This document shows, in pieces, positions 13,611-21,576 of a stretch of 45,953 nucleotides of DNA. The DNA comes from Bacteroides sp. (GTDB lineage Bacteria > Bacteroidota > Bacteroidia > Bacteroidales > Bacteroidaceae). Below the pieces are notes generated by a model. The model did not search any database and was not told where the DNA came from. It worked only from the letters and a program-made list of their open reading frames with translations. The position numbers and the translations under genes were made by a program. The stretch spans positions 1-45,953 of the forward strand of contig JAFURM010000045.1 in the NCBI GenBank assembly GCA_017471925.1, written 5' to 3'. The first letter of the stretch is position 1. The number at the start of each line of letters is the position of its first letter.

Positions 13611-13639
13611 CCCCATTGTCAAGTGAAATATTTCCAACC

Positions 13640-14608
13640 ATGCGCAAAGTTTACTACATTTATAATCCTCAGACTCAGACTTACGACCGCATTTATCCCA
13701 CCATGCGGCAGCGGATTATGAGCTATCTGCGCCGGCTGTTCATCTGGATGGGCTTCGGCGTGGTGTGCTTCATCATCCCTCTGATTGTCTTCGGTTCCCC
13801 CTCCGAGAAGGAACTCCGCAAGGAGAACAGTCGCCTTCTGGCCCAGTATGACCTGCTTGACGCCCGCCTTGATGAGGCTCTGGACGTGCTGCAGGACATC
13901 CAGCAGCGTGACGACAACCTCTATCGGGTCATCTTTCAGGCCGACCGCATTCCCGAGGCAATCCGTAAGGCCGGGTACAGCGGCACCAACCGTTACGGGG
14001 AGCTGATGGACATGGCCAATGCCGACCTGGTGGTGAACACGACGCAGAAGCTGGACCTCCTGGCCAAGCAACTGTACATTCAGTCCAACTCTTTTGATGA
14101 TGTGTTGGAGATGTGCAAGAATCACGAAGAACGGCTGCGTTGCGTGCCGGCCATACAACCCGTTTCCAACAAGGACTTGAAACGGACGGCTTCCGGCTAT
14201 GGCACACGTATTGACCCCATCTATGGTACCAGCCGTTTCCATAATGGAATGGATTTTTCGGCCAATCCCGGTACCGATGTCTATGCTACGGGCGACGGTA
14301 CGGTGGTGAAGATGGGCTGGCAGACGGGATATGGAAAGACCATTGTCGTGGACCACGGCTTCGGCTACCGCACGCTCTACGCCCATTTGCGTGACTTCCG
14401 CACCAAGGTGGGCAAGAAGGTGGTGCGTGGCGAGGTCATCGGCGGTGTGGGCAGCACCGGCAAGAGCACCGGCCCCCACCTCCACTATGAGGTGCACGTC
14501 AAGGGCCAGGTGGTGAACCCCATCAACTACTACTTCATGGACCTCAGTGCCGAAGACTATGACCGCATGATTCAGATTGCCGAAAACCACGGCAAGATGA
14601 TGGACTGA
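13640..14608 (+). CDS. M23 family peptidoglycan endopeptidase
   Basis: Predicted cell-wall hydrolase or activator anchored in the inner membrane. From the ATG at 13640 the protein is 322 aa. An alternative TTG at 13616 would add eight residues but sits at the predicted transcript start. One membrane helix (FIWMGFGVVCFIIPLIVFG), a coiled-coil-like segment (SEKELRKENSRLLAQYDLLD...), then a C-terminal LytM/M23 domain. The zinc-site motifs are complete: RFHNGMDFS (HxxxD) and GPHLHYEVH (HxH). This coiled coil plus M23 layout is common in Bacteroidetes. It has its own promoter and diverges from alaS. Confidence 0.93.
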   Translation: MRKVYYIYNPQTQTYDRIYPTMRQRIMSYLRRLFIWMGFGVVCFIIPLIVFGSPSEKELRKENSRLLAQYDLLDARLDEALDVLQDIQQRDDNLYRVIFQADRIPEAIRKAGYSGTNRYGELMDMANADLVVNTTQKLDLLAKQLYIQSNSFDDVLEMCKNHEERLRCVPAIQPVSNKDLKRTASGYGTRIDPIYGTSRFHNGMDFSANPGTDVYATGDGTVVKMGWQTGYGKTIVVDHGFGYRTLYAHLRDFRTKVGKKVVRGEVIGGVGSTGKSTGPHLHYEVHVKGQVVNPINYYFMDLSAEDYDRMIQIAENHGKMMD

Positions 14609-15084: not shown

Positions 15085-15636
15085 TTAGAACTTATAGCCT
15101 ATGGTGATGTATGCGGCTGCATTTTCTGCCGATACCTCATTGCTGGCGAATACATTGGCAAGTCCCTGCTCCCATTCCATCCCGAATACCATGCGGTGGT
15201 ATTCAAAATCTACTCCTAACATCAGGCCATAATCGAAACGTTCTCCCTCCACGTCAAAGAAATCATAGTCATCATAACCATCGGCCGAAACGTTGCCTGA
15301 AAAGCCATAGGCCAAGTAGGGGCCAGCCTTGAATGTCATGTTGACACTCTTGCTCAGTCGGGTACGATAAGCAGCCATAATGGGGAGCTGGGCGTAGAGT
15401 AGAGTGGCGTCCAAACCTTCATAAGTACATCCCTTCTGCTTCAATTCCAGTGTGGGCATAATCAACCAGTTGGTACTGAAAGGCTTCTCTATGCCCACTC
15501 CCACTTTCCAACCAAATTTCTTGTTTAAATCGCCAATCCATGCCACGCCGGCACCGGCTTTAACGTTCCAGGTAATCTGAGCTGATGCCCAGGTACAGGT
15601 CATTAACATGACCAAAACAATAAGTCCTTTTCTCAT
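15085..15636 (-). CDS. Small outer-membrane beta-barrel protein
   Basis: 183 aa. Signal peptide about 1-20 (MRKGLIVLVMLMTCTWASAQ), then alternating hydrophobic/polar strands (ITWNVKAGAGVAWIGD, FGWKVGVGIEKPF, FDYGLMLGVDFEYHRMVFGME) ending in AAYITIGYKF with a terminal Phe, as in eight-stranded OMP/PorT-like barrels of Bacteroidetes. Its ATG is 11 nt after the stop of the caspase-like gene, so it is almost certainly co-transcribed as the last gene of the 20370-15085 unit. It could anchor or export a partner in that locus, which is inference from context. Confidence 0.88.
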   Translation of the reverse strand: MRKGLIVLVMLMTCTWASAQITWNVKAGAGVAWIGDLNKKFGWKVGVGIEKPFSTNWLIMPTLELKQKGCTYEGLDATLLYAQLPIMAAYRTRLSKSVNMTFKAGPYLAYGFSGNVSADGYDDYDFFDVEGERFDYGLMLGVDFEYHRMVFGMEWEQGLANVFASNEVSAENAAAYITIGYKF

Positions 15637-15647
15637 AAATCCTCATT

Positions 15648-18437
15648 TTAATGTTGTATATTGAAATTGATTTTCTTCCACTTGCTTTCCATGTTGGGCG
15701 AGACGGTGACGGTCGGCGTTTGGCTCTTGTCGTTCAGAGTGAGTGATTTCCGCATAACCTCTGTCTGTACGTAGCGTGACAACTCTTCGTAAGAGACGTT
15801 CCCTCGGCTCTGTTTCAGCTTTTTCAGCAGATAGTAGGTGAACAGTCCATGCCCCTTGTTGCGATAGCTGTAGGCGGTCTCTGCTTCAGAGGTGGCCGAA
15901 AATACCACTACATTGCCTGATAGCGTCTCCTCTTCGGGACGGATAGAAACTCCGCGTGCAGCCACTATGGCGGTACCGTTGCGCTTCATGCCGCTGAAAC
16001 AGGCGTCAAGGAACACCGTGACCGACTGGGCCGGCAGGCGGCCTAATGTGTCGTACAACTCTTTCAGACTGTAACCCGATATGGCTACATCGGAAGCATA
16101 GCCGTCTGTTGGTAAAATGTAGGCACAGCGTTTCTCCTCGTCGGGCATACCGTGGCCGGCATAGTAGAAGTAGATTCTACATACGCCACTATAGGCTTGC
16201 GCCACTTTTTTTAACCATTCTACAGTACGCCTGATTTGCATGTGCGAAGCATTCTCCAACAGGCGAATGTTCTCTTCGGGAATACCGAGGAGATTGGTGC
16301 AATACTCTTTGAATATCTTCCCGTCGTGCAGGGCAAATTCTACGGGAGTTTCCACATCGTATGTCTCGTTGGCAATGATGATGGCAAAACTGTATTCGTT
16401 CTCCTGCTTGTTCTGTGGAATATCGGTATCTACGTCTGAAATTGTAGGGCCGTTTATTTCAGGTGCTTCCTGCTGAACTGCATTCTGCTCTTCTCTTGGA
16501 GTTACAGATACATCTCCATCTCCCGACATCAGGAACATGGGGGAAGGTTGTTTGGATGGTTTCTGTGGCTGTAGTGTAGGTGTTCCAGCCAATAACGGCC
16601 TGCTATCTATACCCAATTCCTTGCATATTTCTGCGCTGGCATAAAATTGCGGTATCTTTTCGACATCATCAAATGCTTTCTTGCCAATCACTTTAAGGCT
16701 TTGTGGCAGATGTACTTCCTGTAGTTCCTTGAAACGTCTAAAACTGTAATTGATAATTTCTTCAACGCCCTCTTCAATGATGAGTTTTTGGGCGTGACAT
16801 CGCTTATCTAAAGCTATTTTCCTGACTGGATAAACCGTTCCATTGTATTCCACCTCGCCTGGAATGGTAATGCTGCTGGCATCCTGTTCGAAGTCATAAA
16901 TGGTTACCACACCAGAAATTAAAAAGCACTGGAATTTTTGCGACTTGTAAATTGTCTCGAATTCCTGTATTTTTTCTTCCTTTCCCCCTTTTTTCTTCTC
17001 TTTGTCAATCGTGACAAATAGGCTCAATACTTGCGGAATATTCTGCTGTGTTACGACTCCTTCTGCTGTTAGTGTATTGTTCTCTATACCCAATTCCTTG
17101 CATATTTCCGCACTGGCATAGAAATGAGGTATGTTCTTGGGCTTAACAAATGTTTTTTTACCGATAACCTTTAGACTTTGTGGTAGACGCACTTCCTGTA
17201 GAACTTTTATTTGTTGGAGTTTACCGTAATCACCAGGAGCTATTGTAAATTCTTCCACTCCTTCTTCTATAATGAGCGTTGAAACTCTTTTGACTGCCAA
17301 ATCCTTTAATATAATTCTCTTCACTGGATAGAATGTGCCGTCTTGCGAACTTACAATACTTGGAAAAACGATGCTATCTACTCTCATCATAGCAGGGACT
17401 TCCGTAATTGTAACCTCTTCAGAATGTAACACACAGTTAAACATAGCAAATCTATTGGTGTATGTAAATGCTTCCTTTTTCTCCTCTTTGTCATTTGAGG
17501 TTGACACCATTAATGTTTGCTGGATAACCGGTTGTGTTGTTACCGTGGTTTCTGCTGATAGTGGTTGGTAGTCTACTCCCAATTCCTTGCAGATTTTTGC
17601 ACTGGCATAGAATTGCGGTATCTTGTCGACATCATCAAATGTCTTCTTCCCAATTTTTATTAGGCTTTGTGGCAGATGCACTTCCTGTAGTTCCTTGAAA
17701 CGGCTGAAACTGTAATTGGTGATTTCTTCAACACCCTCTTCGATGATGAGCTTTTGGGCGTGATATTTTTGGGGCCTGTACAAGCCTATCTTTCTTACCG
17801 GATAAACTACCCCATTATATTCTACTTCGCTCGGGATGGTGACATTGATGGCTTTTGTGTCAAAGTCTATAATGGTGGCTACACCGGAGCTTAAAACACA
17901 CTGAAACTTTTGTGACTTGTAAGTCGTTTCAAATTCTCGTGATTTTTTCTTTTCTTTTTCCTCTGCCAGTTGTACCTTTTCTGTTATTTTAAATTCCTGA
18001 CAAATCTCTTGGCTTGCATGAAATTGCGGTATATTGGCAATATCTGCGAACGTGTTTTTCCCAATCTTTTTCACCGTTTCAGGCAGGTGAACCTCCTTCA
18101 GGTCCCGGAACTCTACGAAACTGTAGTTGGCAATCTCCTCTATGCCCTCTTCTATGGTGAGTGATACGGTGGAGTAGTTGTTGCCACTGATGTAGGTGTC
18201 TATTTCTTTTACGGGATATTTTCGACCTGCGTATTCCACGGTGCTTGGTACTCTTACAATCTCTGCTTTTTGGTCGAAGCCTGTGATGCACACAGTCTCA
18301 CCGGATTTGATTTTGCATTTGAATTCAACGGAATGATAAGTATAGGTAAACCGCTGTGCGTATGCACCTGCTGATAACAACAGACAACACACGACGGCCA
18401 AAAAACTTTTGAGAGAAGGAATAAATGGTTTATTCAT
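15648..18437 (-). CDS. Exported four-module BspA-like/caspase fusion protein
   Basis: 929 aa. Signal peptide about 1-27 (ends LLLSAGAYAQ). Four homologous modules of roughly 125-135 aa follow (about 28-155, 168-295, 323-455, 490-617). Each begins with a 'Y.S..F.C.l.sg...I..F' strand pair and ends in a BspA-like leucine-rich unit (LIIEEGVEEI.NYSF..FKEL QEVHLPQSL..IGKK.F). Lys/Glu-rich linkers separate them. A Pro/Gln-rich hinge (618-680) leads to a peptidase C14 (caspase/metacaspase-like) domain at about 681-890 with the dyad His762 (YYAGHG) and Cys813 (DACFSG). Both residues are intact, so an active cysteine protease is expected, secreted to the periplasm or beyond. Modules 2 and 4 are nearly identical over long stretches; module 3 is divergent. 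The substrate is unknown. It is 24 nt downstream of the LPP20-like gene. Confidence 0.9.
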   Translation of the reverse strand: MNKPFIPSLKSFLAVVCCLLLSAGAYAQRFTYTYHSVEFKCKIKSGETVCITGFDQKAEIVRVPSTVEYAGRKYPVKEIDTYISGNNYSTVSLTIEEGIEEIANYSFVEFRDLKEVHLPETVKKIGKNTFADIANIPQFHASQEICQEFKITEKVQLAEEKEKKKSREFETTYKSQKFQCVLSSGVATIIDFDTKAINVTIPSEVEYNGVVYPVRKIGLYRPQKYHAQKLIIEEGVEEITNYSFSRFKELQEVHLPQSLIKIGKKTFDDVDKIPQFYASAKICKELGVDYQPLSAETTVTTQPVIQQTLMVSTSNDKEEKKEAFTYTNRFAMFNCVLHSEEVTITEVPAMMRVDSIVFPSIVSSQDGTFYPVKRIILKDLAVKRVSTLIIEEGVEEFTIAPGDYGKLQQIKVLQEVRLPQSLKVIGKKTFVKPKNIPHFYASAEICKELGIENNTLTAEGVVTQQNIPQVLSLFVTIDKEKKKGGKEEKIQEFETIYKSQKFQCFLISGVVTIYDFEQDASSITIPGEVEYNGTVYPVRKIALDKRCHAQKLIIEEGVEEIINYSFRRFKELQEVHLPQSLKVIGKKAFDDVEKIPQFYASAEICKELGIDSRPLLAGTPTLQPQKPSKQPSPMFLMSGDGDVSVTPREEQNAVQQEAPEINGPTISDVDTDIPQNKQENEYSFAIIIANETYDVETPVEFALHDGKIFKEYCTNLLGIPEENIRLLENASHMQIRRTVEWLKKVAQAYSGVCRIYFYYAGHGMPDEEKRCAYILPTDGYASDVAISGYSLKELYDTLGRLPAQSVTVFLDACFSGMKRNGTAIVAARGVSIRPEEETLSGNVVVFSATSEAETAYSYRNKGHGLFTYYLLKKLKQSRGNVSYEELSRYVQTEVMRKSLTLNDKSQTPTVTVSPNMESKWKKINFNIQH

Positions 18438-18461
18438 TGTTATTGAAGTGATTTTAGATTC

Positions 18462-19412
18462 TTACAATCCTGCAGCCTGACTGAATTTGCGGCTCAGGTT
18501 TTCGTCTTCCTGCTGTAGCTCTTCGGAGAGGGTTTGCAGGGCGATGCGTTTGCATTCTTCTTGGTCGTAGGCGATGCGGAGCAATACCTCCTTCTGCTTC
18601 CCTTGCTCACGGTGAAGTTCCATGACGATTCTGATTTTGCCGATGCGCTGCATTACCTTGTTGCGGCTGCGCAACATGGTCTGCTGTACGGCACCGGCCT
18701 CGTCATCGCTTATCAGGCTGTTGCCCACAGCATTCTCGGTAATGGTCTGCATGGACGACTCCATGAGGTTGGCCAGCTCAATTTTTGCCAGTTCCAAAGC
18801 CTGTATGCGGGCCATCTCATAGGTACGTCCGCTGCAGATGGCCATGCTCGTCAGGTACTTGGGCTCTTGTCGGTCGTTGAAGAGTCGCTGTATGGTGTAA
18901 GTGTTGGCCAACTGTTCCTCTAATGGCAGAGAGCCGGGAGCTACTTCCCATTTTTTCTTGGCGTAGTTCTTGGCCTCTTTGCGGGCCAGTTTCCGCAACC
19001 CCTCATCGTTTACCTCCTTCAGTTCGTAGGGAGAGGGTTCGGGCATCGTCAGCTTCAGGGATAGTTTGTAGACCACCAACCGTTTCAGACGCTCCGGAAA
19101 TTCATACTCCATGCGACCGAAACGGTCGCTTTTGATGGTGATGTTGCGTGTGCGGTCGGGCATATAGATGAGGGCTTCACCGGGCGTGTAAATCACATCG
19201 CCGATAATGTTGCCTTCGAAGACGAAGCTCTTGCTGTCGGCCACCGACACGCGCAATACGGCGCACTGCTCTTCGTTCAAATCCAAACGAGGTTTGGTGC
19301 GCGCCAGCAGGTCGAACTCCATGCATTCAAAGGAGGGATGCAATTCCTGTGCCGAAAGTATGGCCGGCCATAGACTAAGGAGTATAAGGCTTCGGATAAT
19401 GATTCGTTTCAT
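18462..19412 (-). CDS. Exported LPP20-like protein of the caspase locus
   Basis: 316 aa. Signal peptide about 1-21 (MKRIIIRSLILLSLWPAILSA). The first half (about 25-120) reads like a PEGA/beta-sandwich domain (CAVLRVSVADSKSFVFEGN, RTRNITIKSDRFGRMEYEFP). The second half (about 180-300) has the alternating Ala-rich helices and strands of LPP20/FlgT-like envelope proteins (MARIQALELAKIELANLMES ... LLRIAYDQEECKRIAL). There is no lipobox cysteine at the signal end, so it is periplasmic rather than a lipoprotein. Domain calls are by eye and moderate; a new family is also possible. It is 49 nt downstream of the DUF4384 protein gene. Confidence 0.78.
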   Translation of the reverse strand: MKRIIIRSLILLSLWPAILSAQELHPSFECMEFDLLARTKPRLDLNEEQCAVLRVSVADSKSFVFEGNIIGDVIYTPGEALIYMPDRTRNITIKSDRFGRMEYEFPERLKRLVVYKLSLKLTMPEPSPYELKEVNDEGLRKLARKEAKNYAKKKWEVAPGSLPLEEQLANTYTIQRLFNDRQEPKYLTSMAICSGRTYEMARIQALELAKIELANLMESSMQTITENAVGNSLISDDEAGAVQQTMLRSRNKVMQRIGKIRIVMELHREQGKQKEVLLRIAYDQEECKRIALQTLSEELQQEDENLSRKFSQAAGL

Positions 19413-19461
19413 GGTATGCGTTTTTATAGGAAGTATTGATTAATGATTGTACGAAAGTAAT

Positions 19462-20370
19462 TTATGGCGTGATTTCTATGCTTCGGATGTCCGTTTGCAG
19501 TTTCTTGTCGATGAGCTTGCGTTTGGTGAGCCACTTTTGAAAGTCACTGAGGGAAAGCTGGCGGGGGAGGACGCGGCCATGACTGTCTTGTCCGGCCTGG
19601 CGGTCAGTAGCCTTGGTGAAGGGGGTGGGCGAGAAGATGATGTAGAGGTGGTTGGTCTCGCCCGTCTCGCCGCAGTTCAGTTCATACTCGTCCACGGTTT
19701 GGCGGGTATAGGGAGCCTGAGCCAAGGACTTGTTGAAGAAGATGTAGCTCTGATTGGCCTTGATGGCTACTTGTCCGTCGTCGTCCCGTCGGTAGGGCAG
19801 GAGACAGTAGACCGTCTGTGCTGCATCTATCAGATAGACAGCTAAGTAACCCTGTGCGGGCGAGAGGAAAGAGAGGTAGAGACGGTCACCGTTGCGGAAG
19901 GTGTAGCTTTCATCGCGCGGAGCGATACCGTTGCGCAACAGGGTGGCTTTGAAGTCTATGTGGTGGCTCGTGAGGGGGCGTGCCTTGCCGCAGACGGAGA
20001 CTTTTACCACCAAGGTTTTCTGCACATAGCTGATGTTGAACTGTGGCTCACTGCTGTCGGCCAGCCATTCCCCCTTCACCTCACTTTCACTGAGCGAAAA
20101 GAAACTGCTGCTATCGTCACCGTTATTGCTCTCCATGCGCATCAGGTTGTCCTGAATGAGCAGGGTGCCGAACTCGTCGGCTAGGGCGGTCAGGCGGGCA
20201 CGCTTCAGCGCCGTCTGCTTGGCCTCTTCCAACGAAACGTTCTCGGGTGTGTAGTAGGTGTACTCGCCGCACACCTGGCGCACCTTTTGACACCGGCCTG
20301 CTTGCGGCAGGCCGAGGAACATCATGAACAGTAAGAAGAACCGGCACACCGGTAGAAGAGCTGTTTTCAT
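19462..20370 (-). CDS. Exported DUF4384-domain protein, first gene of the caspase locus
   Basis: 302 aa from the ATG at 20370. A longer frame to 20460 exists, but only the shorter form starts with a signal peptide (MKTALLPVCRFFLLFMMFLG ... GRCQ). About residues 37-75 (YYTPENVSLEEAKQTALKRA ...) match the FlgT/LPP20-type N-terminal helix seen in exported Bacteroidetes proteins. About 155-215 form a DUF4384-like beta domain (NGDRLYLSFLSPAQGYLAVY ... VYCLLPY). DUF4384 domains are often found next to or fused with caspase-like proteases, which fits the gene two positions downstream. No catalytic residues recognised; a recognition or scaffold role is inference. Confidence 0.82.
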   Translation of the reverse strand: MKTALLPVCRFFLLFMMFLGLPQAGRCQKVRQVCGEYTYYTPENVSLEEAKQTALKRARLTALADEFGTLLIQDNLMRMESNNGDDSSSFFSLSESEVKGEWLADSSEPQFNISYVQKTLVVKVSVCGKARPLTSHHIDFKATLLRNGIAPRDESYTFRNGDRLYLSFLSPAQGYLAVYLIDAAQTVYCLLPYRRDDDGQVAIKANQSYIFFNKSLAQAPYTRQTVDEYELNCGETGETNHLYIIFSPTPFTKATDRQAGQDSHGRVLPRQLSLSDFQKWLTKRKLIDKKLQTDIRSIEITP

Positions 20371-21171: not shown

Positions 21172-21576
21172 ATGCTGAATCCGGACAAGAACCTGAAGAT
21201 ATACTACTCCATCAGTGAGGTGGCGCAGATGTTTGGCGTGAGAGAGACGTTGCTGCGCTTTTGGGAAAAGGAGTTTCCGCAGCTGAAGCCCAAGCGGGCC
21301 GGACGCGACGTGAGACAATACACCCGCGAGGACATAGAGGTAGTGAAACTTATCCATCATCTGGTGAAGGAACGCGGCATGACAATTCCCGGTGCACGCC
21401 GGCGCTTGAAGGATAACCGTGAGGCTACGGTGAAGAACTTTGAGGTGGTGGACCGTCTGAAGGCCATCCGCGACGAACTGATGAACATGAAACTGGCTCT
21501 CAATGCCTTCACCTATGAGGATGTGGAGGCATTGAAGGAGAATATTCGGGAGAATGTTTCACAAGCGGATGAGTAG
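21172..21576 (+). CDS. MerR family transcriptional regulator
   Basis: 134 aa. The N-terminal winged-helix MerR domain is clear: YYSISEVAQMFGVRETLLRF followed by WEKEFPQLKP and RQYTREDIEVVKLIHHLVKE (about 10-70). A short helical dimerisation tail follows. No cysteine or other metal/drug-binding site is visible in the C-terminus, so the inducer is unknown. This WEKEFP form is the common housekeeping MerR type of Bacteroidetes. It converges on rel with 46 bp between. Confidence 0.92.
   Translation: MLNPDKNLKIYYSISEVAQMFGVRETLLRFWEKEFPQLKPKRAGRDVRQYTREDIEVVKLIHHLVKERGMTIPGARRRLKDNREATVKNFEVVDRLKAIRDELMNMKLALNAFTYEDVEALKENIRENVSQADE

What the first reader, a model, noticed from the sequence alone, without database searches (positions are those of the whole stretch)
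15085..20370. Four-gene exported caspase locus with no obvious described counterpart
Seen: four consecutive minus-strand genes with gaps of 49, 24 and 11 nt, each encoding a signal peptide: a DUF4384-like protein, an LPP20-like protein, a BspA-like/caspase fusion with His762/Cys813 intact, and a small beta-barrel. Known: DUF4384 domains often travel with caspase-like proteases, and characterised bacterial caspase-like defence proteins are cytoplasmic. Inference: this is an envelope system in which an exported protease is displayed or held at the outer membrane, with the barrel as anchor or exit and the first two proteins as sensors or scaffolds. It could process surface or host proteins, or act in envelope stress.
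Basis: partly seen in the sequence, partly recalled or inferred. Interest (0 to 1): 0.85.

Follow-up and report, generated by a model that had tools for sequence, protein, structure and literature searches.

The report
Exported modular caspase operon in Bacteroidales
Gut bacteria of the order Bacteroidales carry a patchily distributed set of neighbouring genes for proteins sent out of the cytoplasm, built round a caspase-like protease with interchangeable N-terminal parts; the window holds a four-gene version, and what it does is not yet known.

Summary
The four genes are real and as described. They are a derived version of a wider operon family, found here almost only in Bacteroidales. Its core is three exported proteins: LPP20-like, DUF4384 and a C-terminal caspase. 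A caspase lies within 6 kb of the DUF4384 gene in 62 of 67 loci with room on both sides, the LPP20-like gene in 46 of 67. The caspase domain is constant; N-termini are interchangeable repeats (BspA-LRR, WG, TPR, Sel1). The His/Cys dyad is intact in 115 of 124. Seven degenerate caspases form one clade; five lie directly upstream of an active one. A transglutaminase-like protein recurs in 51 of 126 loci, with a C-H-D triad in 50 of 50. The barrel is not core: it goes with the window's LRR type. The window copy is a gain: the flanking genes are adjacent in 25 of 28 same-genus genomes. I read it as an envelope-located, sensor-gated, Arg/Lys-specific protease. Export and modularity are supported; activity, location and role are inferred. 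My paper searches found no description.

The parts
19462..20370 (-). P1: exported protein; N-terminal beta-alpha-beta domain, then DUF4384 beta-sandwich (302 aa)
   Evidence: Pfam DUF4384 31.7 bits; AF2 mean pLDDT 88.3; DUF4384 in 55 of 56 aligned relatives at E up to 0.01
18462..19412 (-). P2: exported protein; N-domain (about residues 21-130) grafted onto an LPP20-like domain (about 132-315)
   Evidence: The LPP20-like domain is a stand-alone protein of about 225 aa in relatives; only this ORF joins the two among 90 LPP20C ORFs, duplicates included; AF2 about 97 pLDDT over the LPP20-like domain, N-domain low
15648..18437 (-). P3: exported caspase; four tandem LRR_5-type modules (about residues 28-640), D-V-D..IP linker (668), caspase domain 684-923, dyad H762/C813, predicted S1 aspartates D705/D811
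   Evidence: Pfam; module comparison; residues
15085..15636 (-). P4: small outer-membrane beta-barrel, partner of this LRR type
   Evidence: Pfam OMP_b-brl_2 60.6 bits; coupling to the LRR type
13616..14608 (+). M23 peptidase: one edge of the insertion site
   Evidence: Pfam Peptidase_M23; within 300 nt of the MerR gene in 25 of 28 same-genus genomes that have both on one contig
21172..21576 (+). MerR regulator: other edge of the insertion site
   Evidence: Pfam MerR_1

Best explanation
The locus is an accessory, modular sensor-protease system of the cell envelope. Sec exports all four proteins (supported by signal peptides). The caspase protein is a receptor-protease: a swappable repeat module reads a cue outside the cytoplasm and gates a C-terminal paracaspase/metacaspase-type domain predicted to cut after Arg or Lys (architecture shown, sensing and gating inferred). 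The LPP20-like and DUF4384 proteins, conserved with many different N-terminal modules, are the common control or scaffold (association shown, role inferred). The small barrel supplies the cue or the docking site for the window's LRR type (coupling shown, role inferred). In other loci a transglutaminase-like enzyme or a degenerate caspase adds an effector or a regulator (presence shown, role inferred). Most likely output: limited cleavage of envelope proteins in answer to envelope damage or attack.
For: Trio within 6 kb: 71 of 126 distinct loci, 44 of the 67 roomy ones. LPP20-like gene within 300 nt of the DUF4384 gene in 71 of 126, overlapping it in 28. Co-occurrence in 151 genomes: of 24 with DUF4384p, 19 have a strong LPP20C match (p 5e-16) and 20 have PF00656 (p 3e-8). 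Q-rule signal peptides: 103 of 121 DUF4384p, 69 of 77 LPP20C, 81 of 118 caspases, against 71 of 547 control neighbours; looser SPI-like in 14, 3, 27 and 141. Dyad intact in 115 of 124. N-termini vary: LRR_5 in 26, TPR_14 in 21, WG in 19, Sel1 in 16 of 103. Two S1-type aspartates invariant in 37 of 37; MALT1 and metacaspases are the solved relatives. Swapping: for the same ten loci the LRR label needs 2 changes on the caspase tree but 6 on the DUF4384 tree, at least 3 forced. L049 and L051, close on the caspase tree, differ both in N-terminus and in having the barrel.
Confidence: 0.45

Rival explanations
1. Housekeeping-type envelope processing or nutrient protease: the caspase matures or degrades surface proteins, with LPP20-like and DUF4384 proteins as assembly factors.
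Against: Patchy spread (24 of 151 genomes in the family, none of the 9 other same-genus genomes in that sample), lineage-specific insertion, swapping of N-terminal modules.
Confidence: 0.25
2. Secreted toxin of the polymorphic-toxin type, in which the C-terminal caspase is the toxin delivered into competitors.
For: C-terminal caspase toxins of polymorphic systems, in Bacteroidetes and by the Sec/T2SS route among others, are described in PMC3482391 (passages). The caspase is the last domain here (median of about 4 residues after it).
Against: The logic is reversed: constant C-terminal caspase, variable N-terminus. No immunity-like gene among the 23 clusters listed, which shows only families seen in at least 4 loci. 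LPP20-like and DUF4384 partners are not mentioned in the passages read.
Confidence: 0.12
3. Host-directed secreted protease of a gut bacterium.
For: Export; invariant acidic S1-type residues would suit tryptic-like cleavage.
Against: No T9SS tail. Titles name rumen, hindgut and other sources in several animals, so no single host fits. Module swapping is not explained.
Confidence: 0.05
4. Not a system: four exported genes next to each other by chance.
For: The four-gene set as such is rare.
Against: Trio conserved far above chance; a paralogous trio in the same genome.
Confidence: 0.02

Closest known systems
Bacterial metacaspases/orthocaspases (Peptidase C14)
   Same: Caspase domain with His/Cys dyad; repeat domains such as TPR and Sel1 in the same protein; operons with several metacaspases in Bacteroidetes among others (PMC3501461, sections 8 and 13 read)
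   Different: Exported as a set with conserved LPP20-like and DUF4384 partner genes; BspA-LRR and WG modules; module-linked barrel
DUF4384-associated orthocaspases of Alphaproteobacteria and Cyanobacteria
   Same: DUF4384 linked to caspase homologues (PMC6426788, PMC7475262; passages)
   Different: There DUF4384 is reported in the same protein; here it is a separate exported protein next to an LPP20-like gene
EACC1-associated caspases (two-gene conflict system)
   Same: Caspase paired with a conserved partner and variable domains (PMC7159879, passages)
   Different: There the caspase is frequently N-terminal with variable C-termini and the partner is EACC1; here the caspase is C-terminal and exported; NCBIfam model far under cut-off
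Polymorphic-toxin caspases (Tox-Caspase)
   Same: Exported proteins ending in a caspase (PMC3482391, passages)
   Different: Constant C-terminus and variable N-terminus; no immunity-like partner seen among the listed clusters
MALT1 paracaspase
   Same: Best solved-structure match of the caspase profile (E 8e-7), with the two aspartates aligned to aspartates of MALT1 (that these line its S1 pocket is recalled)
   Different: Eukaryotic, cytoplasmic, with death and Ig domains (recalled)
H. pylori Lpp20, Tip-alpha, HP1454; FlgT
   Different: No Pfam LPP20 match in the window protein; no lipobox by the heuristic

Membership tests
Peptidase C14 (caspase homologues) | C14 domain over the curated cut-off | tested here: met
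   68.5 bits against 21.4
Peptidase C14 (caspase homologues) | Catalytic His/Cys dyad | tested here: met
   H762/C813; 115 of 124 caspase ORFs
Metacaspase/orthocaspase/paracaspase specificity class | Acidic residues of the S1 pocket | tested here: met
   D705 and D811 equivalents invariant in 37 of 37, aligned to MALT1 aspartates; role of those residues recalled
Metacaspase/orthocaspase/paracaspase specificity class | Cleavage after Arg/Lys | not testable with these tools
   Needs an assay
EACC1-associated caspase system | NCBIfam NF047832 over cut-off | tested here: not met
   63.1 bits against 140
EACC1-associated caspase system | N-terminal caspase with variable C-terminal domain | tested here: not met
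   Caspase is C-terminal
Polymorphic toxin | Constant trafficking N-terminus, variable C-terminal toxin | tested here: not met
   The reverse is seen
Polymorphic toxin | Adjacent immunity gene | tested here: inconclusive
   No candidate among the clusters listed; rare or diverse ones would be missed
Type IX secretion cargo | C-terminal T9SS sorting domain | tested here: not met
   No Pfam or NCBIfam match in P3; few residues after the caspase domain
LPP20 family (P2) | Pfam LPP20 match | tested here: not met
   None for P2; 1 of 21 aligned rows at E 0.011
LPP20 family (P2) | Lpp20-type fold | tested here: inconclusive
Known anti-phage defence systems (PADLOC) | Match of the system's proteins | tested here: inconclusive
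   P3 matches a generic caspase model, E 4e-8, profile positions 7-173 of 453; the other three window proteins match none
DUF4384-orthocaspase fusions | DUF4384 in the caspase polypeptide | tested here: not met
   Separate genes

The most novel reading that the evidence does not exclude
An extracytoplasmic counterpart of caspase-based immune receptors: interchangeable repeat receptors fused to an exported paracaspase, held by a constant DUF4384/LPP20-like pair, tuned in some loci by a dedicated degenerate caspase (as cFLIP tunes caspase-8, recalled), and set off by attack on the envelope (phage, bacteriocin or contact toxin), with self-limiting or suicidal cleavage of envelope proteins.
Probability: 0.18. 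Interest if true: 0.88.

Novelty: new variant of a known kind. Interest (0 to 1): 0.63.

Why it matters
Bacterial caspase homologues are mostly discussed as cytoplasmic cell-death or defence proteases (my understanding of the field). A conserved exported set with swappable N-terminal modules, fixed partners and degenerate caspase companions would put caspase-type switches into the Gram-negative envelope. It gives testable pairs, for instance closely related caspase domains with and without LRR module and barrel (L049, L051), and members in named strains such as Odoribacter lunatus DSM 112344 and Leyella stercorea DSM 18206.

Tried and rejected
Four-gene unit: rejected, since a P4-like barrel is near 9 of 67 roomy loci. 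Barrel as universal anchor: rejected, tied to one N-terminal type; four other caspases are followed by a different barrel-like protein (cl3, judged by size and C-terminus; one member has a carboxypeptidase-regulatory domain by Pfam). Lipoprotein anchoring: not supported, 3 of 118 caspases flagged. T9SS export: no sorting domain. Polymorphic toxin and EACC1 membership: a defining feature not met. Known defence system: only a partial match to a generic caspase model.

Counts dropped or limited: 137 loci gave 126 after removing 4 without a DUF4384 gene and 7 duplicates. The Pfam tally used 103 of 114 N-terminal segments; near-duplicates and some short ones were left out. The nine non-intact rows are seven degenerate caspases, one fragment (L084) and one weak row (L174, 282 aa). 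Two of the seven degenerate ones have no active caspase seen next to them (L105; L100, where the contig ends), and L063 and L083 are near-copies. My gene picker lost real genes; counts come. The 80 named loci were found with a DUF4384 query and are the best 80 of 149, so co-occurrence is from that side; of 49 genomes with PF00656, 29 lack DUF4384p. For one search I used 23 of the 29 LPP20C genomes, leaving out six with E above 1e-5, but all 24 DUF4384p genomes, weak ones included. L170's barrel-like gene has no Pfam match at E 0.01. A first statement, that the LRR group is one side of a branch of the caspase tree, was wrong: it was held only against the degenerate group. Against all rows it needs 3 changes for nine rows and 2 for ten; the report now says so.

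Full report
Observation. The four minus-strand genes stand at the stated places with gaps of 49, 24 and 11 nt. Pfam gives DUF4384 for P1, three LRR_5 stretches plus Peptidase_C14 for P3 and OMP_b-brl_2 for P4; P2 has no family. His762 and Cys813 are confirmed, and all four begin with a Q-rule-type signal peptide by my heuristic. The window is contig 23 of a genome of 2.87 Mb, 89% complete.

Paralogous set. The same genome has a second set on another contig: LPP20-like gene, DUF4384 gene and a caspase with a weak, sub-cut-off TPR match. It shows the core: the C-terminal part of P2 (about 132-315) is a stand-alone protein of about 225 aa in relatives. P2 of the window carries an added N-domain of a kind found at other places of this genome (two matches at 56-57% identity, two at 28-30%). 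The best-read copy is on a barrel-like protein without Pfam match, and one weaker copy looks by eye like a sulfatase-modifying-factor protein; in L127 the domain is on an FGE-sulfatase protein. Among 90 LPP20C ORFs, duplicates included, the window's alone has this fusion.

Spread. The DUF4384 profile finds 24 of 151 genomes of the family, in 12 of 30 genera, 26 of 247 in the order, three of them weak (E above 1e-11), and in a phylum sample 3 of 296: the window genome and two weak partial hits. In public genomes 149 relatives were found and the best 80 kept; their titles name Prevotella, Segatella, Palleniella, Xylanibacter, Leyella, Odoribacter, Butyricimonas, Alistipes, Bacteroides, Muribaculaceae, Dysgonamonadaceae and others, some only as Bacteroidia or Bacteroidota. 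The other 69 were not seen.

Neighbourhood. Of 137 loci, 126 distinct ones hold the DUF4384 gene. In the 67 with at least 6 kb on both sides, a caspase lies within 6 kb in 62 (54 on the same strand), an LPP20-like gene in 46 and a P4-like barrel in 9; the trio is complete in 44. LPP20-like and DUF4384 genes are within 300 nt in 71 of 126 loci, overlapping in 28, with the LPP20-like gene upstream in 67; the window is one of four inverted cases. Across 151 genomes, of 24 with DUF4384p 19 have a strong LPP20C match (p 5e-16) and 20 have PF00656 (p 3e-8). Three of the four without PF00656 have a caspase by my own profile about 1 kb from the DUF4384 gene (L166-L168).

Caspase. The domain is at the C-terminus, usually with 2-5 residues after it; the part before it runs from 21 to 817 aa. 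Of 103 N-terminal segments, 26 match LRR_5, 21 TPR_14, 19 WG and 16 Sel1. A D-x-D..IP linker precedes the domain in 70 of 118. The dyad is intact in 115 of 124; seven rows are degenerate at one or both positions, one is a fragment, one is a weak row. The seven form one set (100/99), next to a set of five active caspases. In L058, L063, L064, L083 and L102 the degenerate gene lies directly upstream of one of those five (coordinates); L063 and L083 are near-copies, and L105 and L100 show no such partner. Two S1-type aspartates (D705, D811) are invariant in 37 of 37 rows, and the profile's solved relatives are MALT1 and metacaspases; that these aspartates set Arg/Lys specificity is recalled.

Other partners. 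A protein of about 500 aa occurs in 51 of 126 loci; 39 of 56 members have a Q-rule signal peptide and 8 a looser one. It has a sub-cut-off Transglut_core match (16.8 bits against 23, one member scanned) and an invariant C-H-D triad in the 50 members of at least 400 aa. The window locus lacks it; the paralogous locus has it. A beta-propeller protein, mostly exported by the heuristic, occurs in 22 loci.

Barrel and LRR module. Nine caspases have the window's LRR type (blastp E of 1e-20 or better); a P4-like barrel follows in seven (in L057 as two ORFs), a barrel-like gene in L170, and in L088 the contig ends 22 nt on. By a strict rule it is 7 of 8 evaluable against 6 of 103 others, p 4e-7; of the six, one is a misjudged LPP20-like gene, one is the truncated relative L169 and four are another barrel-like family. 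L051, next to L049 on the caspase tree, has another N-terminus and no barrel. All nine lie in one supported set of 11 caspases (100/97) together with L169 and L051. For the same ten loci the label needs 2 changes on the caspase tree but 6 on the DUF4384 tree, at least 3 forced by well-supported branches (a quick tree with some long branches). The window and L057 are neighbours on both trees. In L174 the same kind of caspase and barrel sit beside a protein kinase whose C-terminal part matches my DUF4384 profile (50.8 bits; Pfam at E 0.01 shows only kinase families), with a PP2C gene. So caspase, LRR module and barrel appear to travel as a cassette. P3 holds four LRR modules 38-75% alike; the repeat region has 39-42% GC against about 52-59% over the flanking alaS, M23 and SpoT genes.

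Insertion. Of 41 same-genus genomes (the window's included), 28 others have M23 and MerR genes on one contig, and in 25 they are within 300 nt; in the window they are 6.5 kb apart with the four genes between. The other three have gaps of 3.7, 10.7 and 30 kb. Six stretches read round these genes in same-genus genomes, among them two of the wide gaps, held none of the four genes at E 1e-4.

Structures. P1: mean pLDDT 88.3; matches are beta-sandwiches. P2: LPP20-like domain about 97, N-domain low; Lpp20, Tip-alpha, HP1454 and FlgT appear among matches, but crystallin chains score as high, so the family tie is suggested by fold and not proven.

Literature. Nine searches found no description of this set: DUF4384 with caspase, and DUF4384 alone; prokaryotic caspase homologs with Bacteroidetes and signal peptide; C14 with Bacteroidales; LPP20 with caspase-like and periplasm; pseudocaspase with operon; orthocaspase with Prevotella; bacterial caspase with periplasm; repeat domains with Bacteroidetes. 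Of PMC3501461 I read sections 8 and 13 and passages; it notes operons with several metacaspases, in Bacteroidetes too, and TPR and Sel1 domains. PMC6426788, PMC7475262, PMC3482391, PMC7159879 and PMC4933709 were seen as passages. PMC6426788 counts 10 pseudo-variants in 1078 Bacteroidetes sequences, so degenerate ones were known to exist there. The library lacks most subscription papers.

Reading. Trio conservation, N-terminal modularity, module-barrel coupling and lineage-specific gain are shown by sequence; export is supported by a heuristic. That the repeats sense, that the partners control, that cleavage is after Arg/Lys and that the role is an answer to envelope damage or attack are inferences.

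Noticed in passing
L058:9873-13192, L063:13075-16769, L064:10390-13687, L083:13079-16773, L102:2708-6072: Degenerate caspase gene directly upstream of an active one; the seven degenerate ones are one set on the tree, next to five active partners.
   Followed up: partly
L090:11444-12904 and members in 50 other loci: Transglutaminase-like protein with invariant C-H-D triad near the caspase operons.
   Followed up: partly
L174:5154-10277: Protein kinase with a DUF4384-like C-terminal part and a PP2C gene beside a window-type LRR caspase and barrel.
   Followed up: partly
L175:7375-8223, L176:3552-4586, L177:6923-8128 (own genome); L127:14599-16011: The N-domain of P2 is a recurrent exported module, found on barrel-like and sulfatase-modifying-factor-like proteins.
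   Followed up: partly
L057:10219-10850: Barrel gene lies in two ORFs (frame break or assembly error); left as it is.
   Followed up: no
L035:3653-5471: Two proteins without Pfam family between the paralogous caspase and its transglutaminase-like gene.
   Followed up: partly
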